Source: Thermotoga profunda AZM34c06 (GTDB lineage: Bacteria; Thermotogota; Thermotogae; Thermotogales; DSM-5069). Taken from it: DNA of 64,000 nucleotides. The translations under genes and the position numbers were made by a program. The notes beneath the pieces are model-generated. The model did not search any database. It had not been told where the DNA came from and saw nothing but the letters and a program-made list of their open reading frames with translations. Below are positions 30,131 through 42,936 of the stretch, one piece after another (within the stretch, counting starts at the first letter, position 1; each line of letters begins with the position of its first letter). The stretch lies in the NCBI RefSeq assembly GCF_000828675.1, contig NZ_AP014510.1, forward strand, positions 2,003,413 through 2,067,412. Direction: 5' to 3'.

Positions 30131-30422
30131 TCTCCTCACTCCTGGGGTTTTCAATTTAAGATTTTATCATTATCTTTTTTGCCTTTGTTTTTCTTTTAGG
30201 TAAATTTGGTTTCGCACTTGCTGCTTTAAAAAATCGCCATACGAATCTCTGAAAACAACTGACTATGATATAATGTAATTGCAAAATAATGTTTTTGATA
30301 TTTTCTATGGCTATTGTATGGTGAGGCAAATTTCATCACAAGAGATTGAGAGAAGATCAATTTGCTGATTTCATGTTCCAAAAATAATCTGATTTGATTT
30401 TATTGGCAAGGAGGGATTGGTA
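30131..30422. promoter_or_regulatory. Divergent intergenic region between the pyr and ggt operons
   Basis: This A+T-rich stretch holds the start signals of both divergent units. On the plus strand TGATATAAT at 30266-30274 is an extended -10 box without a clear -35, a weak candidate promoter for the ggt unit. I found no convincing pyr promoter on the minus strand, no PyrR-type binding loop and no recognisable riboswitch. Confidence 0.4.
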
Positions 30423-32144
30423 ATGAAGAAGTTTGTATCAATACTTTTCTTATTAGGAATCAGCATCTCAATTTTGGCAGTTTCAACAGGCCAGATCATG
30501 CTCTCAAAGAATGGTGTTGTTGCCGCCGCAAATCCTTACGCTGCTGCAGCAGGAGCAGAAATTTTGGAAAAGGGTGGTAATGCAGTAGATGCCGCAGTAG
30601 CAGTTGCTTTTGCATTAGGTGTTGTGGAACCATATGCAAGTGGTCTTGGTGGAGAAGGTGTTATGATCATTCATACATCTGATGGTCAAAATATAGCTAT
30701 TGATTACAAATCTGTCGCTCCAATGGATCTCTCCAAGTATACAAAATCTCCAAGCAATTATTCGTCAGGACCACTTTCAGTTTGTGTTCCAGGAGTAGTT
30801 GATGGTTTGATTAAGGCACTTTCAGAGTGGGGAACAATGAATCTCAGCGAAGTCATGGAACCCGCAATTCGTTTGGCAAGAGAAGGTTTTGTTTTGAACG
30901 AAACTTATGTTGGTGTCTTATCTGATAATTATGAAAAACTTCTAAATGATCCTGGCGAAGGCGCCTTGGTATACTTAAAAGACAATCTTCTTTACGATCC
31001 AGGAGATTTATTCAAAAATCCCGTCTTGGCAGATACACTCGAATTGATTGCAAAAGAGGGTAGAGATGTTTTCTACAAGGGAGAAATAGCCGATAAGATA
31101 GTCAAATTTATGCAAGAGAATGGCGGAGCAATAACCAAACAAGATCTCGAACAATACCATGCAATTGTTAAAGAACCTATTATTGGAACTTATAGAGGAT
31201 ACAAAATAATCACTGCACCACAACCCGTTGGTGGCACTACTCTTGTTGAAATACTCAACATACTTGAAAGATTCAACATCTCTGATCTTTCATGGGACGA
31301 TCCACTTTACATCCATTTACTCTCCGAGGCTTTATATCTGGCTACTATCGATATGAGGATTTACTGTGGTGACGATCCCAATGTTCCTGTCGAAGCTTTG
31401 ATCAGCAAAGAATATGCAAAAAGCAGATTTGAAATGATACCCCTTTCAAAGGCGATAGCAAGATCAAGTAGTGCCGCCGAACGTCAGAAACTGGCTGGAG
31501 ATCCTTTCAAATATCTTGACAACAAGAAGTTTTTTGACAAAATCTTGGAAGACCTTGGAGAGAAAGTAAAAATCGAGAGTCCATCGACAACTCACGCCAG
31601 TGTAGTCGATAAATGGGGAAATGCGGTCGCATTTACTCAAACACTCAGTTCTTTCTTTGGATCAGGTAACGTTGTACCTGGAACAGGTATAATTCTCAAC
31701 AACGAGATGGCGAATTTCTCAACATCTGGGCCTAATGCACTTGCTCCAGGTAGAAGACCCCGCACCACAATAGCTCCCACAATCGTCTTGAGACCAAATG
31801 GAGATCTTTTAATGGTCGTTGGCACCCCTGGCGCATCAAGAATTCTTTCGACATTATCTCAAATGATAGTCAACGTTATAGATTTCGGCTATTCAATTGA
31901 TCAGGCTATGAAGCTTCCGAAGTTCTGTTCATATGATACTTACACAGACTTAAAGATCGAAGGAGGATTCCCCGAAGAAACGATTAAAATTCTTGAAAAA
32001 TATTATGGTTATAAACTCGAATTGTATCCCGAACTTGATCTTTTCTTCGGTGGTCCAAATTGTGTTTATAAACAAGAAGATGGTATTTACATAGGTGTCG
32101 GATCATTTAGAAGACAAGGTGCTGCAGCGGTACCAGAAAAGTGA
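30423..32144 (+). CDS. Secreted gamma-glutamyltransferase-family hydrolase, possible poly-gamma-glutamate depolymerase
   Basis: The 573-residue GGT-fold precursor has a signal peptide (KKFVSILFLLGISISILA), EKGGNAVDAAVAVAFALGVVEP, LAREGF, and the autoprocessing site PSTTHASVVD with catalytic Thr near residue 389. GSGNVVPGTGIILNNEM and PGRRPRTTIAPTIV follow. Two residues that bind the free glutamyl end in E. coli GGT are changed: Arg114 aligns with Lys, and Asp433 with Asn (NNEMANFS). That suggests a substrate other than glutathione. Next to pgsBC, cleavage of poly-gamma-glutamate is inferred. AAGGAGGG precedes ATG 30423. Confidence 0.88.
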   Translation: MKKFVSILFLLGISISILAVSTGQIMLSKNGVVAAANPYAAAAGAEILEKGGNAVDAAVAVAFALGVVEPYASGLGGEGVMIIHTSDGQNIAIDYKSVAPMDLSKYTKSPSNYSSGPLSVCVPGVVDGLIKALSEWGTMNLSEVMEPAIRLAREGFVLNETYVGVLSDNYEKLLNDPGEGALVYLKDNLLYDPGDLFKNPVLADTLELIAKEGRDVFYKGEIADKIVKFMQENGGAITKQDLEQYHAIVKEPIIGTYRGYKIITAPQPVGGTTLVEILNILERFNISDLSWDDPLYIHLLSEALYLATIDMRIYCGDDPNVPVEALISKEYAKSRFEMIPLSKAIARSSSAAERQKLAGDPFKYLDNKKFFDKILEDLGEKVKIESPSTTHASVVDKWGNAVAFTQTLSSFFGSGNVVPGTGIILNNEMANFSTSGPNALAPGRRPRTTIAPTIVLRPNGDLLMVVGTPGASRILSTLSQMIVNVIDFGYSIDQAMKLPKFCSYDTYTDLKIEGGFPEETIKILEKYYGYKLELYPELDLFFGGPNCVYKQEDGIYIGVGSFRRQGAAAVPEK

Positions 32145-32153
32145 GGGATAATC

Positions 32154-32705
32154 GTGAGAAAATATCTTTTGGCATTGTTAATTTTGCTGACCTTATCCAT
32201 TACCTTTGCTCAAGAATTGGTCTTCCAACAACCAGTACTTATAACTTCTGCTGGTCAGAGCGCAGGTGTCACAATGATGAAGGTCTTGGCAACCAGAGCT
32301 AAACTCCAATTCAATTTCGATGCACTTGCTAAGCCAGAGGCATTGACTGGTAATTTTAAATCACTCATCATAGTTGTTGGAGCAAGTTCTAAAGGACTTG
32401 GTGCGGCGGGAATAGATATAGAGCAAGAAATTCAAAGAGTGACAGAACTTTTGAACAAAGCCAAAGAAATCGGCTTAAAGGTTATAGTAGCTCATATTGA
32501 AGGTCAATCAAGACGTGGAAAAACAAGCGACCAATTGAGTGAACTTGTTATACCGTTTGCCGATCTTGTGATTGTCACAAAAGCCGGAAACGAAGACAAC
32601 TTCTTCACAAATCTTTGCGAAAAACAGCAAAAGAAATTAATCGTTGTCGAAACAACAAGTGCTGTCCAAAGTATCTTGGAGCAATATTTCAAGGCTGGTG
32701 AGTGA
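32154..32705 (+). CDS. Exported protein resembling the DUF6305 family
   Basis: The 183-residue protein has an N-terminal signal sequence (LLALLILLTLSITFA) and a Rossmann-like alpha/beta domain: LITSAGQSAGVTMMKVL, FKSLIIVVGASSKGLG, VIVAHIEGQSRRGKTSDQL and FADLVIVTK. I believe it corresponds to DUF6305, whose function is unknown. GTG 32154 follows GAGGGAT. It lies between the GGT-family gene and the first M14 deacylase gene with gaps of less than 10 nt, so it belongs to the same unit. A role in handling glutamate polymers outside the cell is inference. Confidence 0.65.
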   Translation: MRKYLLALLILLTLSITFAQELVFQQPVLITSAGQSAGVTMMKVLATRAKLQFNFDALAKPEALTGNFKSLIIVVGASSKGLGAAGIDIEQEIQRVTELLNKAKEIGLKVIVAHIEGQSRRGKTSDQLSELVIPFADLVIVTKAGNEDNFFTNLCEKQQKKLIVVETTSAVQSILEQYFKAGE

Positions 32706-32707
32706 TC

Positions 32708-33745
32708 GTGCTAAAAACAAATCTGACTGTTGTTCTCTTAGTAAGTGTTGCGATGCTCTGCATCGCAGCACCTCTTTTCCATGATGTGAGACCAGGCTAT
32801 GGTGTAACCCAAATAAAGTGGTTGAGTGACTATCATCCTTCTTTGAGAGGTACTTGGGGCGATACAAGAATTTATATTCTTGAAGGTGAGGAACCTGGTG
32901 CGAATGTACTGTTGCTTTCAGGTACACACACAAATGAAATCGCTGGAATATTCACTTCCTTAGTTTTCATCGAAAAATCTCTGGTAAAAAAAGGCAGACT
33001 GTTTGTTGTGCCTTGGGCAAACAACAGCGCAGCCACCTGGGGAAGTGTTTCATATGATAAACCAGAAGAAACTATGACCTCTCCTGCTTACATAAACTTT
33101 GTAACACTCAGTGGCCCAAGAAACGTTGTTGTTGGCTCAAGAAGAACAAATCCATTTCATCAAGAGACTGATCCAGCTACTTACACTCACCTTTCTGGAT
33201 TGGAATTCCCTGGATATGAAGCACGAAATCTGGACAGAGTTCATCCAGGCAGAGCCGATGGAACCTTAACAGAACAGATCAGTTTTGCTCTATTCGAGCT
33301 TGTTCGAAAGGAAAAAATAGACATGGTTGTCGATCTTCATGAAGCTGGAACTTCTTCAAGGCTTGCAAACATGTTGATATGTAACCCAAAGAACCTGGAT
33401 ATGGGTGCCATGGTTGTATTAGATCTTGAATTCGAAGGTTTTCAGATAAAACTTGAGCAATCAAGTGAGGAATTCAGAGGACTGAGCCACAGGGAATTTG
33501 GAGATCATACAGATGCACTTGCCTTCTTAATAGAAACGCCCAATCCTTCTCAGGACACAAATGCAAAATCTGCTTATACTTTGGACCACCCTGAATTCCC
33601 ACTCTGGAAAAGAGTATATACGCACTTTAGGACTTTTCTGATGTTATGTGAATACTTGGACGACTTTATAGGACGTAGTATCATCTTTGAAGGACTCCCT
33701 GAGCGAGATACATTTGAAAACAATTTTTTCATGATCTATAACTGA
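32708..33745 (+). CDS. Exported M14-type zinc deacylase/carboxypeptidase, copy 1
   Basis: The 345-residue protein has an N-terminal signal segment and a succinylglutamate desuccinylase/aspartoacylase-like catalytic fold. Zinc-ligand motifs are SGTHTNEIAG (H and E) and VVDLHEAG (H); AFLIETPNPSQ carries the putative catalytic Glu. Family members cut N-acyl amino acids or amide bonds with a terminal carboxylate, which fits gamma-linked glutamate products. Start is GTG 32708 or the overlapping GTG 32702. A related protein is encoded at 35.3 kb in the same unit. Confidence 0.8.
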   Translation: MLKTNLTVVLLVSVAMLCIAAPLFHDVRPGYGVTQIKWLSDYHPSLRGTWGDTRIYILEGEEPGANVLLLSGTHTNEIAGIFTSLVFIEKSLVKKGRLFVVPWANNSAATWGSVSYDKPEETMTSPAYINFVTLSGPRNVVVGSRRTNPFHQETDPATYTHLSGLEFPGYEARNLDRVHPGRADGTLTEQISFALFELVRKEKIDMVVDLHEAGTSSRLANMLICNPKNLDMGAMVVLDLEFEGFQIKLEQSSEEFRGLSHREFGDHTDALAFLIETPNPSQDTNAKSAYTLDHPEFPLWKRVYTHFRTFLMLCEYLDDFIGRSIIFEGLPERDTFENNFFMIYN

Positions 33746-33765
33746 ATAAAGGAGAGGGCTCAACA

Positions 33766-35088
33766 TTGGAAATTGTACTCTTTTTGATTATTATAACTGC
33801 CTTCTTGATCCTGACATTTTTGAAATTTCCAAAGGGAGTTTCTTTTTTACTGATTTCAACGATAGTACTACTGTTGAGTGAGAAAAAATTTGACATTCAT
33901 GTTTTAATAGAAGGTGCCTTTGGCTATTTTGATGCCGTAATAACAGTACTATCAGCCATGATATTCGTTGTCGCAATAGAAAGGTCAGGATTGCTAAGTC
34001 ATTTTGCGAATATTTTGACAAAAAAATTCTCTTCAAAGCCAAAGTTGCTCTTACTGTTCACTACACTTCTTGCCATGAGTGGAGGAATGATAACGGGTTC
34101 ATCATCGGCTTGTATACTTACTACCGGTGCTGTGGCCTTCCCAATCCTCAAATCCATAGGTTTAAACAATAAAAAATCAGGAACTATCATAGCAATATCG
34201 TCAGTACTTGGTATGATCGCACCACCGGTGAATATCCAAGCTATGGTGATTTGTGAAGGAGTAGACATGCCTTATGTTGGATTCACCTATCCCCTACTTT
34301 GGCTCACAGTTCCAACGGCACTTTTGGTGTCTCTTACGATCGCAGGAAAAGACATCCAAAAACCAAAAATCAAAGAGAATATGCAATTCAAAACTAAAGA
34401 TGTCATTCTATATCTTCCTTTAATGGTTCTTGTAGCTCTTTTGATCTTGGACAGTTTCGAAATTTTTCAGTTAGGTCTTGTATTGATTTTCTTTGTGAGT
34501 GCAATCATAGCTATTTTATGTGGAAAAAGAAAATCCAGTTTTGTTGAAGTTTCGTTGAATGCTATGGAACAATCTCTACCGATCTTGGCAATACTTGTTG
34601 GTGTTGGCATGTTGATTCAAGTAATGACCCTCAGTGGTGTTAGAGGATTAATAGTCGCAAGTATGCTTTTCTTCCCTTATAGCATATTGTTCTTGACATT
34701 AGGACTTGGGGTACCAATGTTTGGTGCAGTTTCATCCTATGGTGCTGCTTCTGTACTTGGAATACCATTTCTTCTGGCATTTCGTGGAGGTAATGACATT
34801 TTGATAACCTCTGCGATATCCTTGCTTGCAGGACTCGGTGACATGTTACCTCCGACGGCATTGGCAAGTACTGTGAGTGCTCAGATCGTGGGTTTAGATT
34901 CCTATGTCCAGATCCTTAAAAAATCAATTCCATTTATTATAGTAATTGGTGTGGTGTCTGTCATAGTAACAATGTATTCTTTCAAACTTGTTAAAGTGCT
35001 CAGTAATCCATGGTGGTTTTTGGGAATTGTTGGTGCAATATTTGTCGCTTGCATTTTTGACGATGTGATATTCAAAAGGAGGAAGTGA
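33766..35088 (+). CDS. DctM-like (TRAP large subunit type) membrane transporter
   Basis: The 440-residue protein has about 11-12 hydrophobic helices and family-like segments ITGSSSACILTTGAVAFPIL, VLGMIAPPVNIQAMVICEG and GLGDMLPPTALASTV, with the two-repeat pattern of TRAP/IT-superfamily permeases. No DctP binding protein or DctQ small subunit is encoded nearby. Import of glutamate or small gamma-glutamyl products released by the neighbouring exoenzymes is inferred. TTG 33766 follows GGAGAGG. A tiny membrane-protein gene follows directly. Confidence 0.8.
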   Translation: MEIVLFLIIITAFLILTFLKFPKGVSFLLISTIVLLLSEKKFDIHVLIEGAFGYFDAVITVLSAMIFVVAIERSGLLSHFANILTKKFSSKPKLLLLFTTLLAMSGGMITGSSSACILTTGAVAFPILKSIGLNNKKSGTIIAISSVLGMIAPPVNIQAMVICEGVDMPYVGFTYPLLWLTVPTALLVSLTIAGKDIQKPKIKENMQFKTKDVILYLPLMVLVALLILDSFEIFQLGLVLIFFVSAIIAILCGKRKSSFVEVSLNAMEQSLPILAILVGVGMLIQVMTLSGVRGLIVASMLFFPYSILFLTLGLGVPMFGAVSSYGAASVLGIPFLLAFRGGNDILITSAISLLAGLGDMLPPTALASTVSAQIVGLDSYVQILKKSIPFIIVIGVVSVIVTMYSFKLVKVLSNPWWFLGIVGAIFVACIFDDVIFKRRK

Positions 35089-35092
35089 TGCC

Positions 35093-35239
35093 TTGATTAC
35101 CTATATCTACATAGCAATACTTATTTATTTTTCAATGATTTTGGTGAAATTGGTTTTGAAAAAACCAGACAACTGGAATTGGTTAATGGCCGCAATGGTC
35201 TTGACACCCTGGGCATTGAGAATATTCTTGATCAAGTGA
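35093..35239 (+). CDS. 48-residue membrane protein after the DctM-like gene
   Basis: TTG 35093 has GGAGG 10 nt upstream. The protein has one N-terminal hydrophobic helix (YIYIAILIYFSMILVKLVL), a short KKPDNWNW link, and a second hydrophobic run (LMAAMVLTPWALRIFL). It sits 4 nt after the permease gene and 11 nt before the second M14 gene. The tight packing suggests a real gene and possibly a small subunit of the permease. I do not recognise the sequence. Confidence 0.6.
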   Translation: MITYIYIAILIYFSMILVKLVLKKPDNWNWLMAAMVLTPWALRIFLIK

Positions 35240-35250
35240 GAGGTAGTTAG

Positions 35251-36327
35251 ATGAGAATTACAAAGATTGTTCTGTTTTGTGCAATTACTGTATTCATGGT
35301 GCTTGGCTCTCTTGGTCCTTTCAAGTCTCATGACGACCTTGAGACCATAAGTCCTGGACCAGGTGTTACGCAGGTAAAGAAATTGAGCGATTACTTTCCT
35401 GAACTTCGTGGAACACCTGGTGATACAGATATCTACGTACTTGAGGGTAAGGAATCAGGTGGTTGTGTTTTAATCGTTGGCGGGACTCATCCGAATGAAC
35501 CTGCAGGTTACTGCACAGCCAGGATTATTGTAGAGAATTTTTACGTAGAGAAAGGAAAAGTCATAGTCATACCAAGAGCAAATATCAGTGCTTTTTCACA
35601 CACACAACCTCTGGAAGCCACACCTGGAAAGATACACTTCTCATGGAATAATAAAGAAATGATAATAACTATAGGTTCGAGATTAACAAATCCAATTCAT
35701 CAATGGCCAGATCCAAGATTATACAAAACAACTGGTGGGCAGATTCTCAGTGGTTCTGAACGCCGCAATCTAAATAGGGCATATCCTGGAAATCCAAGAG
35801 GAACAATGACCGAAAAAATAGCATACGCAATTATGCAAGTTATACGTATAGAAAAACCTCAAATATCAATTGATCTGCACGAAGCAGCACCTGAATATAC
35901 TACAGTAAATGCAATAGTAGCTCACGATCGTGCACTCGATATCGCTGTAGAAGCTGCCATGATGCTTGAGATGGATGGAATTGATATAAGTGTCGAAAGA
36001 TCTCCCAGAGAATTTCACGGGTTATCCCATAGAGAATGGGGAGATAATTCAGAGACACTTGCCTTTTTGCTCGAAGTTGCTAACCCATCACAGGGAAGAC
36101 TCAGGGGAAAAACCAACGAAAGACTGGTTATAACAGGATTCGATGAGTATTATTTGAAGGCGGCGAAAGCAGGTAGACTCAACGTTCCATACGATGAGAA
36201 AGGTCTTCCTCTTAACTTAAGAATAAAGAGACATTTGAAAACAATTTTGATGATCATTGACACCTTCAACACATATAACCACGAAAATTCAATAGTACTG
36301 ACCGACCCTTCAGGAGCCTCATTTTGA
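35251..36327 (+). CDS. Exported M14-type zinc deacylase/carboxypeptidase, copy 2
   Basis: The 358-residue protein has an N-terminal signal-anchor (VLFCAITVFMVLGSLGPF) and the same active-site blocks as the copy at 32.7 kb: VGGTHPNEPAG, SIDLHEAAP and FLLEVANPSQ. Shared segments such as GVTQ-K-LSDY and SHRE(F/W)GD show the two are paralogues, clearly diverged. Both ends of the reading frame look intact. It is the last gene of the plus-strand unit; its stop is one base from the stop of the convergent PgsW-like gene. Confidence 0.8.
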   Translation: MRITKIVLFCAITVFMVLGSLGPFKSHDDLETISPGPGVTQVKKLSDYFPELRGTPGDTDIYVLEGKESGGCVLIVGGTHPNEPAGYCTARIIVENFYVEKGKVIVIPRANISAFSHTQPLEATPGKIHFSWNNKEMIITIGSRLTNPIHQWPDPRLYKTTGGQILSGSERRNLNRAYPGNPRGTMTEKIAYAIMQVIRIEKPQISIDLHEAAPEYTTVNAIVAHDRALDIAVEAAMMLEMDGIDISVERSPREFHGLSHREWGDNSETLAFLLEVANPSQGRLRGKTNERLVITGFDEYYLKAAKAGRLNVPYDEKGLPLNLRIKRHLKTILMIIDTFNTYNHENSIVLTDPSGASF

Positions 36328-36328
36328 C

Positions 36329-37288
36329 TTAGCGCGCTTTGACAAATTGCTTTATCAGGTTTTTGCATCTTTTTTCTGAAGCCTTTGGCAAAGGTATAGG
36401 ATCCCATAACAAACCATATTTTGTGGTCAATTTTTTCATATTGAGCAAACTCAAAACAGGTACATTATTGTTAATCATCAATCCTATCATTGATTCATTG
36501 TCCAGAGTTCCCTTATCAGTTATCAAACCAACTTGCATTGCCGCAGTGGCGGATCTACCGAGATTGATCAAACTTCCACCGATATTCACAAATGCAGCTA
36601 TCCGTTCATCGCAATTGCTTATGTAGACTTGGTAAAACCACCAAAGATCGTGCTCGAAAGATTCTCCTTCGCGAAATACAAAATCGTATTCACTTGCTTT
36701 GCGTTTCAATTTATCCCGAATTTCCTCGGAAAATTCACTTCCTTTGTTGTCCGAACCACCGTAGGAGAATAACAGTGGCCTTTCGAATCCAATTTCCACC
36801 AGCCAATTGAAAAGATCAAGAACGGTAAAATCAATTTGATTTGCTCCCCATTGTGATGCTCCTATTGAGCAGATCACCAATGGTCTGGCTCCTATTGCTT
36901 TGCATGCACTCAGTGTAGCAACTATAAGACCGGGAAAAGAACCAGATGCACCAACTGCTACGCAATCTCCTTTTTTAACACCGATTTTGATCAACAAATA
37001 AGAGATCAAAACAGCCATATCGGGATTTGTCGTAGTCCTCTTTGATTCAAGGTCACCTGCTGTCGTTGTAAGTTCTGTAAGTTCTTCACCTATCAAACCT
37101 GTCCTGTTCGGATCAATCAAAGGATCAATCTGGTTTGATCTTCTTTGACTTATTGCATCTATTGCTTCCTCCATGATCAATGATGCTCTGTAAAGTTCAT
37201 CAAAATGAGAATATAAATCAAAAGGTATGAACAACCAGAGCAAGTATAATATCACAGCAGTAATGAACCAAATAAGAACCTTTTTCAT
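36329..37288 (-). CDS. Poly-gamma-glutamate system protein (PgsW-like)
   Basis: The 319-residue protein has one N-terminal membrane anchor (VLIWFITAVILYLLWLFIPF). The rest is an extracytoplasmic or membrane-facing alpha/beta domain: DPNRTGLIGEELTELTTTAG, VAVGASGSFPGLIVATLSA, SIGASQWGANQ, FVNIGGSLINLG. This pattern matches a family found beside pgsB/pgsC in fusobacteria and others; its biochemical role is not established. ATG 37288 overlaps the pgsC stop as ATGA; a frame reaching 37402 would overlap pgsC heavily and is rejected. Confidence 0.75.
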   Translation of the reverse strand: MKKVLIWFITAVILYLLWLFIPFDLYSHFDELYRASLIMEEAIDAISQRRSNQIDPLIDPNRTGLIGEELTELTTTAGDLESKRTTTNPDMAVLISYLLIKIGVKKGDCVAVGASGSFPGLIVATLSACKAIGARPLVICSIGASQWGANQIDFTVLDLFNWLVEIGFERPLLFSYGGSDNKGSEFSEEIRDKLKRKASEYDFVFREGESFEHDLWWFYQVYISNCDERIAAFVNIGGSLINLGRSATAAMQVGLITDKGTLDNESMIGLMINNNVPVLSLLNMKKLTTKYGLLWDPIPLPKASEKRCKNLIKQFVKAR

Positions 37289-37710
37289 AATACCAGCATG
37301 ACCACCAATCTTATAGTTACAGAGACCGCACACACAGAAATGAGAGTTATGAAAATGCCTTGACGTTCCATAGTATTTGCTAACAATCCTGGTATAACCC
37401 AACCAATAGTTTGTAGTTCAATCGGTTGTAGACCAGCTAAAGGAACAAATTTTCTAAAAAGCAATGTAAAGAAGGTAGACAAAAGTATCATCAATATGAA
37501 ACGCCTTCTTGTGTACAAAAATAAATGCCTACGTAGTACTTTGTAAACTAAAAGGCAAGCAAATGAAATCAATGTTGTACACAGTATTCTATATGGCTGA
37601 TCTACGTAAAAAGAGAGCCAGACCGGCACAATAATTCCACCAGGATAAAGACCTGTTAATTCCACAAAAAAAGTTGAAATGAGAATACCTATAGCTGCGA
37701 TTTCAAACAT
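37285..37710 (-). CDS. pgsC: Poly-gamma-glutamate synthase subunit PgsC
   Basis: PgsC is the small membrane subunit that forms the polymerase with PgsB. The 141-residue protein is almost entirely hydrophobic with about four to five helices and carries the family's N-terminal pattern (ELTGLYPGGIIVPVWLSFYVDQP) and GLQPIELQTIGWVIPGLLANTM near residue 105. Length agrees with B. subtilis PgsC (149). It overlaps the pgsB gene by 22 nt and the PgsW-like gene by 4 nt. Confidence 0.9.
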   Translation of the reverse strand: MFEIAAIGILISTFFVELTGLYPGGIIVPVWLSFYVDQPYRILCTTLISFACLLVYKVLRRHLFLYTRRRFILMILLSTFFTLLFRKFVPLAGLQPIELQTIGWVIPGLLANTMERQGIFITLISVCAVSVTIRLVVMLVL

Positions 37711-38840
37711 CTTTCACTCTCCTGCCATTGATCAATTAGCTTCAATCCCGTATCTGCAATATTGCCAAATCCAAAAACAATTGTTCCTGATTCAAGTTTG
37801 TTGATTTCGGTCAAGACACTTTCTATTTTCATAGGCAGGCACTTTGAGTTTCCAAGCCTTCTTACAAATAATACATTGTCCGGTCCTGTCACGTAAAGCC
37901 TCTCAAAGGGGAACCATGTTTTAAGCTGCCTTAGCCACTGTGCTGTTCTATCGACTCTATCAGGTCTAAGATTCAAAACACCAACGAATTTTGGATCTAC
38001 CAATCCATTTTGTATTAAAAATTGCTTTGCTTTTTCAAAAACCTTGATGGTAGAATCAGGATCATTTGCAGCAAAACCATTTATAGCGATTACACCATTA
38101 TTAATTCTCCAACATCTAAGTGCTCCTATATCACCTGGTACATCTGTAAAAATCTTTGTGATCTTTTCCTTCTGTAATCCTATAAATTCACAAACAGCAG
38201 AAGCTAATATGAGGTTCTCGTCAAACTCAAGATAATCACCTGGCTTGATTATTTGTTCATGTGGTTCAATTTCAATTACGGTACATTCCTTCTTTCTCAG
38301 TATTTCTAATGATGATCTATCGAGATTTCCCTTCGTGGTTATCACTGTTGAACCATAATTACATGCTGAAACAATGTTTTTCCTAACTTCTTTAATACTA
38401 TTACCAAGTTCTTCTACATGATCAACTGTAATGCGGGCTATAACTACAATATGTGGTTTCAAAATATTTTGTATCTCACACCGAAGAATCTCTGGATTCA
38501 CACTCATCGTTTCACAGACAAAACCCTCAACAGCTAAACGATTTGCAGTCTTCAAGAACACTCTGATTTGCTCAGTAACTAAAGGTTTTCTTTTTCTTTC
38601 GATGATTTTTTCTTCGCCATCAGGATAAATAAGTACAGGTTTTGATCCAGTAACTTTCCCCAAAACCTTCATTCCATTTTGTCTAAGAGCAAATGTTATA
38701 AGCCTTGTGACACTTGATTTACCACGTACACCCGTCACGGCGATTCTTAATCTTATTGAATTTCGCTTTAAATGAGCGTATATTGCTTCAAACATAAGAA
38801 AAGTCACGAATATCAGAAGACAGGCTAAGACAACCATCAT
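37689..38840 (-). CDS. pgsB: Poly-gamma-glutamate synthase catalytic subunit PgsB
   Basis: PgsB is an amide ligase related to Mur ligases that joins glutamates through the gamma-carboxyl using ATP. The 383-residue protein has an N-terminal membrane helix, P-loop VTGVRGKSSVTRLI, VCETMSVNPE, RITVDHVEELG and FGFGNIADTGLKLI; length fits B. subtilis PgsB (393). ATG 38840 is 8 nt after AGGAG, whereas a GTG at 38888 overlapping the ABC gene has no good site. No pgsA/capA or pgsE gene is present in the window. Confidence 0.9.
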   Translation of the reverse strand: MMVVLACLLIFVTFLMFEAIYAHLKRNSIRLRIAVTGVRGKSSVTRLITFALRQNGMKVLGKVTGSKPVLIYPDGEEKIIERKRKPLVTEQIRVFLKTANRLAVEGFVCETMSVNPEILRCEIQNILKPHIVVIARITVDHVEELGNSIKEVRKNIVSACNYGSTVITTKGNLDRSSLEILRKKECTVIEIEPHEQIIKPGDYLEFDENLILASAVCEFIGLQKEKITKIFTDVPGDIGALRCWRINNGVIAINGFAANDPDSTIKVFEKAKQFLIQNGLVDPKFVGVLNLRPDRVDRTAQWLRQLKTWFPFERLYVTGPDNVLFVRRLGNSKCLPMKIESVLTEINKLESGTIVFGFGNIADTGLKLIDQWQESERCLKSQL

Positions 38841-38884
38841 ATTCGATCTCCTCACAAATAAAAGCACCTTTACAAACCCGGATC

Positions 38885-40765
38885 TCACGCATCGACCAAT
38901 GCTCCTAAGAATTGGCTCTTGTACAATTGTGCATAGAATCCGTTTTTCTCGAGCAATTCTTTGTGCGTGCCTTTCTCTATGATTTTACCTTCATTCATTA
39001 CCAGAATCAAATCGGCATTCCTTATCGTTGAAAGTCTATGTGCTATGATGAAGCTCGTTCGACCTTTCATGAGATCGTCCATCGCTTTTTGAATGTAAAT
39101 CTCTGTTAGGGTGTCTACATTACTGGTTGCTTCGTCCAAGATAAGGATATCGGGATCTGATAAAAATGCCCTTGCTATTGTTATCAGTTGCTTTTCGCCG
39201 TAAGATATATTGGTTGCCTCCTCATTTATCATCGTCTCATACCCATCAGGTAAAGCCATTATGAAATGATGTGCTTGTGCCATCTTTGCTGCCTTTATTA
39301 TTTCGTCTTCTGTGGCATTTTCTTTTCCATAGGCGATATTTTCTCTTATCGTGCCATTGAACAACCAAGTGTCTTGAAGTACCATTCCAAAAGATTTTCT
39401 CAAATTATTCTTGTGAATATCTCTTATATCTATTCCATCGAGTTTTATACTACCGTTTTGTATCTCGTAGAATCTCATCAATAGATTCACCAGTGTAGTC
39501 TTTCCGGCACCCGTTGGACCGACGATCGCTATTCTCTGCCCACTTTTGACTTCTATGTTTAAATCTTCTATCAAAGGTTTTTCTGGAACATAACTGAAAT
39601 AGACTTTTTCAAAATTGATTTCTCCTTTTACTCTTTCCAATTTAACTGCTTCTGGTTTCTCGGGTCTTTCTTCTGGCTCGTCTAATACCTCAAAAACTCT
39701 CTCGGCAGCGGCAATGGTAGATTGAATAAGATTGGCTATATTTGATATCTGCACGATGGGTTGTGTGAATTGCTGTGAATATTGGATAAATGCCTGGACA
39801 TCACCTATCGTTATGGCTCTTTTTGTGACAAGGATTCCACCAACCACAGAGACTATTACATATCCAAGGTTACCTATGAATCTCATCAATGGCATGATCA
39901 TACCAGACAAAAACTGTGCCTTATAACTTGCGTCATACAATTGCTTGTTGATGTCTTCAAATTTTTCGATCGAATCTTTTTCTCTAAGATAAGCCTTGAC
40001 AACTACATGCCCTCCGTAGGTCTCTTCGGTATGTCCACTGATTTCACCAAGGCGTTTTTGCTGTCTGATGAAATACCTCTGGGAATATTTTGCGATGAAA
40101 GCTGTTGCAGCTATACTCAATGGCAGAGTGAGTGCGGTCACACCAGTTAAAAGTGGGCTTATCGTTAACATCATGATCAAAACACCAACGATCGAGATGA
40201 TACCTGATACAAACTGAACTAAACTCTGCTGCAAGGTATTACTTATGAGATCAACATCGTTTATCACGCGGCTGAGAATCTCTCCATGAGTCTTTGAGTC
40301 GTAGAATTTCAATGGTAATCTGGATAGTTTTTCAGATATATCTTTTCTCATCTTCATGACAATCTTTTGTGAAACACCTGCCATTACATATTGTTGAATA
40401 TAATTGAGCAATGCACTGATAATGTACAAAATACTAACCTGAATCAAGATCCTTGCAACGTAAGAGAAATTTATACCTGCATTTGGCAAACGAAGCATCT
40501 TTGCCATAATTCCACGAAAGATCTCTGTAGTCGCCTTACCCAATATCTTTGGAGCTATTATCGTCAGAACAGTTGCCGTAATAGTTATAGCCAAAACAAT
40601 AACTATCGGAACAAAGTATGGCTTTAGATAGGTGATCAATCTTCTCAAAGTTCCTTTGAAATCCTTTGCCTTTTCTGCTGGTCTTGCGAACATCGGTCCG
40701 CCTGGTCTTGGTCCTCTGTCTGGCATTGGTCTGAATTGAGGGGTAGTTCTTTTTTCATCTGCCAT
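38885..40765 (-). CDS. Heterodimeric ABC exporter subunit, catalytically competent half (TM288-like)
   Basis: The ~626-residue membrane-ATPase half-transporter has a Pro-rich N-tail (FRPMPDRGPRPGGPMF), six helices to about residue 350, Walker A GPTGAGKTTLVNLLMRFY, Walker B DILILDEATSN with catalytic Glu, and His in FIIAHRLST. Its signature loop is degenerate (ISYGEKQ in place of LSGGQ). This is complementary to the partner's defects, as in T. maritima TM287/288. ATG 40765 follows GGAGGTGAG. It precedes pgsB with a 44-nt gap. Confidence 0.9.
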   Translation of the reverse strand: MADEKRTTPQFRPMPDRGPRPGGPMFARPAEKAKDFKGTLRRLITYLKPYFVPIVIVLAITITATVLTIIAPKILGKATTEIFRGIMAKMLRLPNAGINFSYVARILIQVSILYIISALLNYIQQYVMAGVSQKIVMKMRKDISEKLSRLPLKFYDSKTHGEILSRVINDVDLISNTLQQSLVQFVSGIISIVGVLIMMLTISPLLTGVTALTLPLSIAATAFIAKYSQRYFIRQQKRLGEISGHTEETYGGHVVVKAYLREKDSIEKFEDINKQLYDASYKAQFLSGMIMPLMRFIGNLGYVIVSVVGGILVTKRAITIGDVQAFIQYSQQFTQPIVQISNIANLIQSTIAAAERVFEVLDEPEERPEKPEAVKLERVKGEINFEKVYFSYVPEKPLIEDLNIEVKSGQRIAIVGPTGAGKTTLVNLLMRFYEIQNGSIKLDGIDIRDIHKNNLRKSFGMVLQDTWLFNGTIRENIAYGKENATEDEIIKAAKMAQAHHFIMALPDGYETMINEEATNISYGEKQLITIARAFLSDPDILILDEATSNVDTLTEIYIQKAMDDLMKGRTSFIIAHRLSTIRNADLILVMNEGKIIEKGTHKELLEKNGFYAQLYKSQFLGALVDA

Positions 40766-42500
40766 TGAGCTCACCTCCAACCGCTTCTTCTTCTGAGATC
40801 TGTGAGAGTACTATTTCTCTGTATACCTCATTTGTCTGCATGAGTTCTTTATGAGTTCCTATTCCTCTTATTTTTCCATCCTTCAGGACTATGATCTGGT
40901 CGGCATGCATGATCGTTGCAACCCTCTGGGCAACTATGATCACAGTGGCATCTTTCGTCTCTTTGAATAATCTTGTTCTTACACGTGCATCCGTCTTGAA
41001 GTCAAGAGCAGAAAAGGTATCATCAAAAAGATAAATCTTTGGCTTTGCTGCAATTGCACGAGCTATAGATATTCTTTGTTTTTGTCCACCAGAGAGATTA
41101 GTTCCACCTTGTGCGATAGTTGTATTTAAACCATCTGGCATCTTTTGAGCAAATTCATTTACCTGTGCTATTTCGGCGGCATTGAATATATCTTCGTTTG
41201 TCAATTGATTTCTACCAAACCTTATATTGTCTGCTATAGTCCCAGAAAAAATTATCGCCTTTTGTGGAGCATAACCTATCATATTTCGCAATTTTTCCAG
41301 TGGAATTCGACGCACATCAACACCATCTATCTTTACACTGCCTTCTGTAACATCGTAGAATCTCAAAATCAAATTCAACATCGTTGTCTTTCCAGAGCCA
41401 GTGCTACCAATGATCGCGGTCACTTTCCCAGGTTCAGCCTTAAAAGAAATGTCCTGCAGGGCTGTTTCCTTGGCCCCTGGATAATGAAATGTCACATTTT
41501 CAAACTCAATTACACCTTTGCCTTCTGGTATAACAGGGTTCTCTGGTTCTTTGACAGTTGGTTCTGTTTGCAATACTTCAACAGCTCTCTGTGCAGAAAC
41601 AGAAGCACGTGGTAAAAACACAAAGATCATGGAAATCATGACAAAGGAAAAGAGAATTTGCATCACATATTGCATAACTGCCATCATCGAACCAACTTGA
41701 AGTTTTCCAAGATCTATTTGTTTAGCACCAAACCAGATCAATGCAATAACTGTGAAATTCATTACGATCATCATTATTGGAAAAATGATGGCTCCTATCC
41801 TGTTGACCTTCAAAGCAGTTTGTGTCAAATCTTCATTTGCTTGTTCAAATCTGTTTTTCTCATATTCTTCTTTGTTAAAAGCTCTGATAACTCTAATACC
41901 TGTGACTCTCTCTCTGAGCACGAGATTTAATCTGTCTATCTTTTTTTGCATACTCTTAAACAATGGCATAGTTTTACTGAATATGAAGTACATCGCAACC
42001 AGAGCTATGGGTACAGTTATGAGCAAAATCATTGTGAGTTTTGCATCTTTTGATATTGCCATGATTATACTGCCAATGGCAACTATTGGCGCTCTTATGA
42101 CCATTCTCTGTATCATAACTAATGCTTGCTGTATTTGAGTTATGTCATTTGTCGTTCTTGTGATCAGAGATGCTGTGCTGAATCTATCAATCTCGGCAAG
42201 TGAAAAACTTTGAATCTTCCTGTAAAGATCATTCCGCAGATCTCTACCCGCTGCCATAGCAGCCTTAGCTGATGTCAAACTCATCAAGATTATTGCTAAT
42301 ACCTGAACTAATGATACGAGTAACATCTTTCCACCGACTTGCCATATATAATCGATATTACCTTTTGTGATCCCTTTGTCTACAATTTGGGACATGAGAT
42401 CTGGCAGATACAAAGTCACATAAGAATCAACAATCACGAGCGCAACAGTTATAATTACCAACCAAAAATAAGGCTTGAGATACCTGAAAACCTTAAACAC
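40755..42500 (-). CDS. Heterodimeric ABC exporter subunit, degenerate-site half (TM287-like)
   Basis: The ~581-residue half-transporter has six helices, Walker A GSTGSGKTTMLN, intact signature LSGGQKQRISIARA, but Walker B IYLFDDTFSALD with Asp in place of the catalytic Glu, and Gln for the switch His (IIVAQRVAT). Its site is therefore the non-hydrolysing one of the pair. GTG 42500 follows GGGGTGAT. It overlaps the marR end by 8 nt and the partner gene by 11 nt. Substrate is unknown: multidrug type in homologues, possibly linked to the capsule-like locus here. Confidence 0.9.
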   Translation of the reverse strand: MFKVFRYLKPYFWLVIITVALVIVDSYVTLYLPDLMSQIVDKGITKGNIDYIWQVGGKMLLVSLVQVLAIILMSLTSAKAAMAAGRDLRNDLYRKIQSFSLAEIDRFSTASLITRTTNDITQIQQALVMIQRMVIRAPIVAIGSIIMAISKDAKLTMILLITVPIALVAMYFIFSKTMPLFKSMQKKIDRLNLVLRERVTGIRVIRAFNKEEYEKNRFEQANEDLTQTALKVNRIGAIIFPIMMIVMNFTVIALIWFGAKQIDLGKLQVGSMMAVMQYVMQILFSFVMISMIFVFLPRASVSAQRAVEVLQTEPTVKEPENPVIPEGKGVIEFENVTFHYPGAKETALQDISFKAEPGKVTAIIGSTGSGKTTMLNLILRFYDVTEGSVKIDGVDVRRIPLEKLRNMIGYAPQKAIIFSGTIADNIRFGRNQLTNEDIFNAAEIAQVNEFAQKMPDGLNTTIAQGGTNLSGGQKQRISIARAIAAKPKIYLFDDTFSALDFKTDARVRTRLFKETKDATVIIVAQRVATIMHADQIIVLKDGKIRGIGTHKELMQTNEVYREIVLSQISEEEAVGGELNGR

Positions 42501-42936
42501 TGCGATCACCCCTTAGATGTTTTTTTAAATTGACTATCATCCTGTCCAAAAATTGTTTGAGTTGATTTTTTTCATCTTCGGAGAATCCTTGCATAGCTAT
42601 CTTTTCTATCTCCTGCATTTGCTCTTGTAAAAATTTATGGGAGCCCTTACCTTTTTTCGTCAAAAAAACTCGCTGAAGTCTTCTATCGTTCGCATCTTGT
42701 TGCCTTTCTATAAGGCCTGCTTTTTCCATTCTTCTTAACATGATGGCAACTGTCGCTGGTCTTAAATTGAGCTTCTCCGCAATTTGGTTTTGCGTAATAC
42801 CTTCGTTTTTTCCTATGATCATGAGCATGGGCGGTTGACCTGGATGTATACCAAGATCTTCCAATTGTTCATGAACAAGGTGAAAATGCAACCTTTGTAC
42901 AATGAGAAACCGCTTAAAAACGTAATCTTCGTTCAT
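42493..42936 (-). CDS. MarR-family transcriptional regulator
   Basis: The 147-residue winged-helix protein has the MarR core: QPPMLMIIGKNEGITQNQIAEKLNLRPATVAIMLRRMEKAGLIERQQDANDRRLQRVFLTKKG, shown here only to name its blocks (recognition helix RPATVAIMLRRM, wing DANDRRLQRVFLT). It is the first gene of the unit with the ABC exporter and pgs genes, and likely represses its own promoter through a palindrome 19 bp upstream. AAGGAG lies 7 nt before ATG. Confidence 0.92.
   Translation of the reverse strand: MNEDYVFKRFLIVQRLHFHLVHEQLEDLGIHPGQPPMLMIIGKNEGITQNQIAEKLNLRPATVAIMLRRMEKAGLIERQQDANDRRLQRVFLTKKGKGSHKFLQEQMQEIEKIAMQGFSEDEKNQLKQFLDRMIVNLKKHLRGDRSV

What the first reader, a model, noticed from the sequence alone, without database searches (positions are those of the whole stretch)
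30423..38840. Poly-gamma-glutamate locus with synthesis and turnover modules facing each other, without PgsA
Seen: PgsB, PgsC and a PgsW-like protein on the minus strand end one base from a plus-strand unit of a GGT-fold hydrolase, DUF6305-like protein, two M14 zinc deacylases, a DctM-like permease and a 48-aa membrane protein. Known: PgsB/PgsC polymerise glutamate; PgsW-like proteins occur near pgsBC in fusobacteria; GGT-fold CapD and Ggt cut such polymers. No CapA/PgsA metallophosphatase-like gene, normally required, is present here. Inference: one system makes, exports, degrades and re-imports gamma-linked glutamate in a thermophile, with PgsW or the ABC pair replacing PgsA, or as an osmolyte or nitrogen store.
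Basis: partly seen in the sequence, partly recalled or inferred. Interest (0 to 1): 0.85.

Follow-up and report, generated by a model that had tools for sequence, protein, structure and literature searches.

The report
PgsA-less polyglutamate synthesis-and-recycling gene block
A heat-loving bacterium carries one compact gene block that appears both to make the nylon-like polymer poly-gamma-glutamate and to cut it up and take it back in; the same gene set recurs in three bacterial phyla and ties two protein families with no known function to this polymer.

Summary
PgsB, PgsC and PgsW (minus strand) end one base from a plus-strand unit in the order GGT, DUF6305, M14, DctM-like permease, 48-aa protein, M14; all named families pass curated cut-offs. 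No PgsA exists anywhere in the complete genome. The pairing is not chance: the same set is one co-directional operon in Cetobacterium (Fusobacteriota), in another Thermotogota family and in two Neomarinimicrobiota genomes. Across 103 Thermotogota genomes PgsBCW and DUF6305 occur in the same 7 of 38 genera (17 shared genomes, one with each alone, 84 with neither). The 48-aa two-helix protein, absent from the databases searched, lies after the permease gene in all 20 modules examined and occurs in exactly the 18 DUF6305 genomes. A close relative lacks precisely this 8.5-kb block between pyrC and the ABC pair, so the ABC exporter is flank, not part. Best reading: PgsBC polymerise, PgsW is the surface partner at the position of PgsA, and secreted GGT and M14 enzymes shorten the polymer for uptake through the permease, with DUF6305 and the 48-aa protein as partners. 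Linkage is shown; substrate, direction and physiological role are inferred.

The parts
30423..32144 (+). secreted gamma-glutamyltransferase (GGT, Ntn hydrolase), no E. coli-type lid loop
   Evidence: TIGR00066 and PF01019 over cut-off; TTH nucleophile motif kept; lid gap against E. coli 2e0w, as in B. licheniformis 4y23
32154..32705 (+). DUF6305 protein: signal peptide plus Rossmann-like domain
   Evidence: PF19823 183 bits; AlphaFold pLDDT 91.1; only weak PDB matches
32702..33745 (+). secreted M14 metallohydrolase a (AstE/AspA-like), GTGA overlap with DUF6305
   Evidence: PF24827 over cut-off; HxxE...H ligands and Glu invariant
33766..35088 (+). DctM-like permease of the ion-transporter superfamily
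   Evidence: PF06808 51.5 bits; profile hits only the TRAP protein DctMQ 9pym in PDB
35093..35239 (+). 48-aa two-helix membrane protein, universal neighbour of the permease
   Evidence: conserved in 20 of 20 modules; phylum-wide in exactly the DUF6305 genomes
35251..36327 (+). secreted M14 metallohydrolase b (AstE/AspA-like)
   Evidence: PF24827 39.4 bits; ligands invariant
36329..37288 (-). PgsW: one N-terminal membrane helix plus predicted extracytoplasmic domain of unmatched fold
   Evidence: TIGR04332 298.5 bits; pLDDT 90.7; no PDB fold match
37285..37710 (-). PgsC/CapC membrane protein
   Evidence: TIGR04011 and PF14102 over cut-off
37689..38840 (-). PgsB/CapB Mur-ligase-like gamma-glutamyl polymerase (ATG at 38840 preceded by GAGGAGAT; a GTG at 38888 is also possible)
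   Evidence: TIGR04012 236.7 bits over cut-off; P-loop GVRGKSS; junction sequence

Best explanation
The block is a self-contained, PgsA-less poly-gamma-glutamate (PGA) synthesis-and-recovery system. PgsB with PgsC joins glutamate through gamma-amide bonds and passes the chain out. PgsW, anchored by an N-terminal helix with its domain outside, stands where PgsA stands in Bacillus. Outside, the lid-less GGT removes gamma-glutamyl units and the two zinc hydrolases cut further gamma-glutamyl or N-acyl-glutamate bonds. The DctM-like permease, with the 48-aa protein as small membrane subunit and secreted DUF6305 as binding or delivery partner, takes the products back in. Shown: gene content, absence of PgsA, conserved physical linkage in three phyla, co-occurrence, purifying selection, movement as a unit, kept catalytic residues. 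Inferred: PGA as the product, re-import as the direction, the roles of PgsW, DUF6305 and the 48-aa protein.
For: Families over cut-off. One co-directional operon: Cetobacterium ggt-DUF6305-TRAP permease-47aa-M14-pgsB-pgsC-pgsW; G101 pgsBCW-GGT-DUF6305-M14-DctM-small protein; Neomarinimicrobiota DctM-small-M14-DUF6305-GGT-M14-GGT-Asp/Glu racemase-pgsBCW-N-formylglutamate-amidohydrolase-like. The last two extra genes point to glutamate: the PGA hydrolases PghP/PghL have N-formylglutamate amidohydrolases among their closest folds (PMC6506827). Co-occurrence 17/1/1/84, nominal p 2.8e-17; identical 7 of 38 genera. The 48-aa protein is in exactly the 18 DUF6305 genomes, seven of which gave no sequence to the search model. 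The empty site in G065 shows the block gained or lost as one. GGT nucleophile, M14 ligands and the lid-less state match B. subtilis GGT, a PGA hydrolase (PMC9073855).
Against: No polymer, activity or transport has been measured. In a Neomarinimicrobiota sample 28 of 30 PgsW genomes lack DUF6305, so PgsBCW can exist without the recovery genes. G024 has DUF6305 modules but no detected PgsBCW. Many modules lie away from pgs and carry C69 dipeptidases instead of GGT, so the module may serve other peptides. Lid-less GGTs are also common outside the module, so that trait is permissive, not specific. Related genomes are not independent observations and several are incomplete.
Confidence: 0.62

Rival explanations
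1. Capsule anchoring: the GGT is a CapD-type transpeptidase that attaches PGA to the cell wall, the M14 enzymes trim peptidoglycan stems to provide acceptors, and the permease does something unrelated to PGA recovery.
For: CapD is a GGT-family protein of the anthrax capsule operon that anchors PGA (PMC4497714); the GGT matches CapD 3g9k; the M14 profile also matches secreted proteins of the Helicobacter cell-shape peptidase group (that identity is from memory).
Against: The permease and 48-aa protein are the most constant neighbours of DUF6305 and M14, which anchoring does not need; GGT is replaced by a C69 dipeptidase in many modules; the GGT scores far higher against ordinary GGTs than against CapD.
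Confidence: 0.15
2. Two neighbours sharing an island: PgsBCW makes a PGA layer, while GGT-DUF6305-M14-DctM scavenges environmental gamma-glutamyl or N-acyl peptides and is linked to pgs by ecology, not by substrate.
For: Modules are often unlinked to pgs, multi-copy and of a C69 type; most Neomarinimicrobiota PgsW genomes lack the module.
Against: Fusion into one operon with pgsBCW in three phyla and matching presence within genera g1 and g38 are hard to explain by ecology alone.
Confidence: 0.18
3. Ordinary PgsBCA-type system whose PgsA lies elsewhere or whose part is taken by the adjacent ABC exporter.
For: The ABC pair runs on the same strand into pgsB.
Against: No PGA_cap protein over cut-off in the complete genome; strong PGA_cap is unrelated to PgsB in the phylum (4 of 18 against 12 of 85, p 0.47); the ABC pair is present without pgs.
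Confidence: 0.04

Closest known systems
Bacillus PgsBCA(E)/CapBCA(E) PGA synthase
   Same: PgsB and PgsC pass the equivalog cut-offs
   Different: no PgsA; PgsW, of a different predicted fold, in its place; recovery genes built into the locus
PgsW-type system (NCBIfam TIGR04332)
   Same: PgsW over cut-off next to pgsBC
   Different: the NCBI model only labels PgsW; no paper on it was found in the library, and the DUF6305/permease/48-aa/M14 module is described in no paper found
CapD and B. subtilis GGT
   Same: GGT family, Thr nucleophile, no lid loop, next to or acting on PGA
   Different: Lys at the Arg position of the substrate-binding region in this clade; hydrolysis against anchoring unknown
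PghP/PghL phage PGA hydrolases
   Same: zinc hydrolases of the carboxypeptidase fold group cutting gamma-Glu bonds (PMC6506827)
   Different: the M14 proteins here belong to AstE/AspA (PF24827) and are only distantly related
TRAP transporters
   Same: DctM-like permease over the Pfam cut-off with a small membrane protein and a secreted partner
   Different: no DctP or DctQ family protein; DUF6305 is a Rossmann-like domain and the small protein has 48 residues
PGA gene cluster reported as specific to Pseudothermotoga elfii subsp. lettingae (PMC10057702)
   Same: PGA synthesis cluster in a Thermotogota bacterium
   Different: that paper's text names it only as PGA synthesis genes; whether it is this locus could not be checked

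Membership tests
PgsBCA PGA synthase | PgsB equivalog | tested here: met
   TIGR04012 236.7 over 222.7
PgsBCA PGA synthase | PgsC equivalog | tested here: met
   TIGR04011 101.5 over 96.45; PF14102 116 bits
PgsBCA PGA synthase | PgsA/CapA (PGA_cap) in operon or genome | tested here: not met
   best 21.5 bits under cut-off 27, a 5'-nucleotidase
PgsBCA PGA synthase | makes poly-gamma-glutamate | not testable with these tools
   needs polymer chemistry
PgsW (TIGR04332) | model score over cut-off and adjacency to pgsBC | tested here: met
   298.5 over 100; adjacent in the loci read
Gamma-glutamyltransferase | equivalog score and autoprocessing Thr motif | tested here: met
   TIGR00066 434.6 over 357.85; TTHxSVVD
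Lid-less PGA-hydrolysing GGT | no lid loop | tested here: met
   short loop as in B. licheniformis GGT, but not unique to the module
CapD capsule-anchoring enzyme | anchors PGA to peptidoglycan | not testable with these tools
   no assay possible
M14 AstE/AspA deacylases | PF24827 score and HxxE...H zinc ligands | tested here: met
   34.1 and 39.4 over 25; ligands invariant in 18
TRAP transporter | DctM permease | tested here: met
   51.5 over 23.8; only 11 of 19 relatives match DctM, 7 match CitMHS
TRAP transporter | DctP binding protein and DctQ small subunit at the locus | tested here: not met
   no such Pfam match among the block's proteins

The most novel reading that the evidence does not exclude
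DUF6305, the DctM-like permease and the 48-aa two-helix protein form a previously undescribed three-part, TRAP-like importer for gamma-glutamyl compounds, coupled to secreted hydrolases so that a bacterium builds an extracellular glutamate polymer and later recovers it as a dedicated store.
Probability: 0.33. Interest if true: 0.82.

Novelty: new variant of a known kind. Interest (0 to 1): 0.64.

Why it matters
It gives a first functional context to DUF6305, for which no paper was found in the library, and to an unannotated 48-residue membrane protein, both tied to gamma-polyglutamate. It shows that PgsA-less PGA systems form a recurring type with PgsW in at least three phyla, and makes the old question of what PgsA does testable by comparison. 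If recovery is confirmed, PGA in these bacteria would be a reversible extracellular glutamate store rather than only a capsule. Thermostable PGA synthase and hydrolases would also be of practical use.

Tried and rejected
ABC exporter pair as part of the system: rejected by the empty site. Hidden PgsA elsewhere: rejected. PgsW as a PgsA-like metallophosphatase: no such fold among the PDB matches, no sequence relative in PDB. PgsW and DUF6305 as relatives of one another: probability 2.6%. DUF6305 as a TRAP-type binding protein by fold: only weak SGNH-hydrolase and ThiM-like matches, TM 0.5 or less. GGT presence alone as a marker: GGT occurs in 37 of 103 genomes, 21 without Pgs. Lid-less GGT as a special feature: common outside the module. 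Module GGTs as one clade across phyla: they group within Thermotogota, but the Cetobacterium and Neomarinimicrobiota GGTs fall elsewhere. Single-protein scan of genome contigs: only 2 loci. Fusobacteriota genomes could not be surveyed beyond one plasmid because no handle was available. A DUF6305 scan of viral contigs was not possible.
Full report
What is there. The window lies at 2003413-2067412 of a complete 2.19-Mb Thermotogota genome. Reading 30417-38888, the plus strand carries GGT, DUF6305, M14a, a DctM-like permease, a 48-aa membrane protein and M14b; the minus strand carries PgsB, PgsC and PgsW. All named families pass curated thresholds. The two units converge with one base between their stop codons; PgsC and PgsW overlap as ATGA, and the best-supported PgsB start is the ATG at 38840 behind GAGGAGAT. 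All genes are intact and under purifying selection against a congeneric genome. GGT, DUF6305 and both M14 proteins begin with signal-peptide-like sequences (seen directly in the sequence), so the hydrolases are expected outside the membrane.

No PgsA. The only genome-wide PGA_cap match is 21.5 bits, below the cut-off of 27, and belongs to a 5'-nucleotidase. Across 103 Thermotogota genomes strong PGA_cap proteins (over 100 bits) occur in 4 of 18 Pgs genomes and 12 of 85 others, with no association. PgsW, in contrast, was found in 17 of the 18 genomes with any Pgs protein and stands beside pgsB and pgsC in the loci read. Its alignment shows an N-terminal membrane helix in nearly all full-length members, and in many a second helix at the C terminus, which places the conserved domain outside by the positive-inside rule (inference). 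AlphaFold gives a confident model (pLDDT 90.7) without a convincing match in PDB, and no PDB sequence relative. PgsA is in any case not strictly needed: pgsBC alone produced 26 g/L L-rich PGA in B. subtilis (PMC6029982), although an earlier study cited there found it essential.

The block moves as a unit. In G065, a congeneric genome without PgsBCW, nadE-pyrEFDKC is followed directly by the ABC pair, MarR and the dehydrogenase gene, with 215 bases between pyrC and ABC2 and nothing of the block. G064 has the same convergent layout as the window. So the whole 8.5 kb, both strands together, was gained or lost as one piece, and the ABC pair with its MarR regulator is flank. The ABC pair resembles the T. 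maritima TM287/288 exporter operon (from memory, not tested).

The link between synthesis and turnover is conserved. In G101, another Thermotogota family, the genes are co-directional: pgsB-C-W-GGT-DUF6305-M14-DctM-small protein. In G018, pgsW-B-C faces M14, small protein, DctM, DUF6305 and a C69 dipeptidase. In Cetobacterium somerae (Fusobacteriota) one operon reads ggt-DUF6305-TRAP permease-47aa-succinylglutamate desuccinylase-pgsB-pgsC-pgsW. In two Neomarinimicrobiota genomes it reads PorV-DctM-small protein-M14-DUF6305-GGT-M14-GGT-Asp/Glu racemase family protein-pgsB-C-W-N-formylglutamate amidohydrolase-like protein with a type IX secretion tail (the Pfam scan was made on one of the two). 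The racemase-like and amidohydrolase-like genes point to glutamate polymer chemistry; PghL, a true PGA hydrolase, has N-formylglutamate amidohydrolases among its closest structural neighbours (PMC6506827).

Phylogenetic profile. PgsBCW and DUF6305 share 17 of 103 genomes, with one genome having each alone and 84 neither, and occupy the identical 7 of 38 genera. The nominal p of 2.8e-17 ignores relatedness, but presence and absence change together inside genera g1 (2 of 4) and g38 (1 of 2) and inside families f9 and f10. GGT alone is a poor marker (37 genomes). In a sample of 100 Neomarinimicrobiota, 30 have PgsW and 2 have DUF6305, both with PgsW about 7 kb away. So DUF6305 predicts PgsW, but PgsW does not predict DUF6305 there.

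The 48-aa protein. It has no database family. An iterated profile over 14,497 ORFs from the loci found it immediately after the permease gene in all 20 modules with a complete permease, including Cetobacterium (47 aa) and Neomarinimicrobiota, and nowhere else. Its signature is a Tyr in the first helix and a C-terminal LR...K. Across the phylum it gives 47 places at E 1.4e-14 or better, in exactly the 18 DUF6305 genomes; the next match is 2e-3. Seven of those 18 genomes contributed no sequence to the model.

The core module and its forms. Around most DUF6305 genes the constant set is DUF6305, permease, 48-aa protein and M14, with a secreted Ntn hydrolase that is either GGT or one or two C69 dipeptidases. 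The Thermotogota module GGTs group together, but those of Cetobacterium and Neomarinimicrobiota do not join them, so the hydrolase was recruited more than once. The permease is only distantly DctM: 11 of 19 relatives match DctM, 7 CitMHS and 3 DcuC, and the profile's only PDB match is the TRAP protein DctMQ. No DctP or DctQ family protein is in the block, so it is not a TRAP transporter as defined, though it may work like one. DUF6305 is a confident single-domain Rossmann-like model (pLDDT 91.1) with weak matches only.

Mechanism. Shown: gene content, absence of PgsA, conserved linkage, co-inheritance, selection, kept catalytic motifs. Inferred from the families: PgsBC polymerise glutamate through gamma bonds; lid-less GGTs such as that of B. 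subtilis hydrolyse PGA (PMC9073855); M14 enzymes of this group cut N-acyl-glutamate-type bonds; permeases of this superfamily import dicarboxylates. Putting these together, the block makes an extracellular polymer and recovers it. DUF6305 and the 48-aa protein are proposed as partners of the permease because they never part from it in the complete modules. Whether the polymer serves as glutamate store, protection or attachment cannot be told from sequence.

Novelty. PGA genes in this phylum have been mentioned once in the papers found, as a cluster of Pseudothermotoga elfii subsp. lettingae (PMC10057702), and NCBI already labels PgsW. No paper in the searched library mentions PgsW or DUF6305; subscription journals are mostly missing from it. 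What is new here is the integrated system, its recurrence in three phyla, the empty-site proof of its limits, and the assignment of DUF6305 and the 48-aa protein to it.

Limits. Fusobacteriota were seen through one plasmid only. Many comparison genomes are fragmentary. No biochemical evidence exists for any member of this set.

Noticed in passing
L109:2935-16326 and L110:4603-18064 (Neomarinimicrobiota): An extended operon adds an Asp/Glu racemase family protein, a second GGT, a second M14 protein and a T9SS-tailed N-formylglutamate amidohydrolase-like protein around pgsBCW.
   Followed up: partly
L020, L021, L112, L113, L116 (Neomarinimicrobiota): The common pgsBCW type without DUF6305 is followed by a different conserved set: about 293, 340 and 345 aa proteins with no family over a cut-off and a roughly 1000-aa protein (with a T9SS tail where scanned, L021).
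   Followed up: partly
L028:10903-12522 and like positions in L030-L033: In genus g27 an OPT-family oligopeptide transporter gene is directly upstream of pgsW, and the GGT or C69 recovery modules sit elsewhere in the genome.
   Followed up: partly
L071:7475-20000, L079, L082: C69-dipeptidase forms of the DUF6305 module, up to three DUF6305 genes in 12 kb; one copy in the same genome (G029:C21) has an internal TAG.
   Followed up: no
L095:1-3149 (Cetobacterium plasmid): Just upstream of the PGA operon are a second ggt, two chromate-transporter genes and a two-component system.
   Followed up: no
window 38885-42936: MarR plus heterodimeric ABC exporter operon reads straight into pgsB and also exists at this site without the PGA block in a relative; it may now drive pgs transcription.
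   Followed up: partly
L081:7438-8043 and L083:8204-8845: Divergent DUF6305 genes that stand alone without permease, M14 or the small protein.
   Followed up: no
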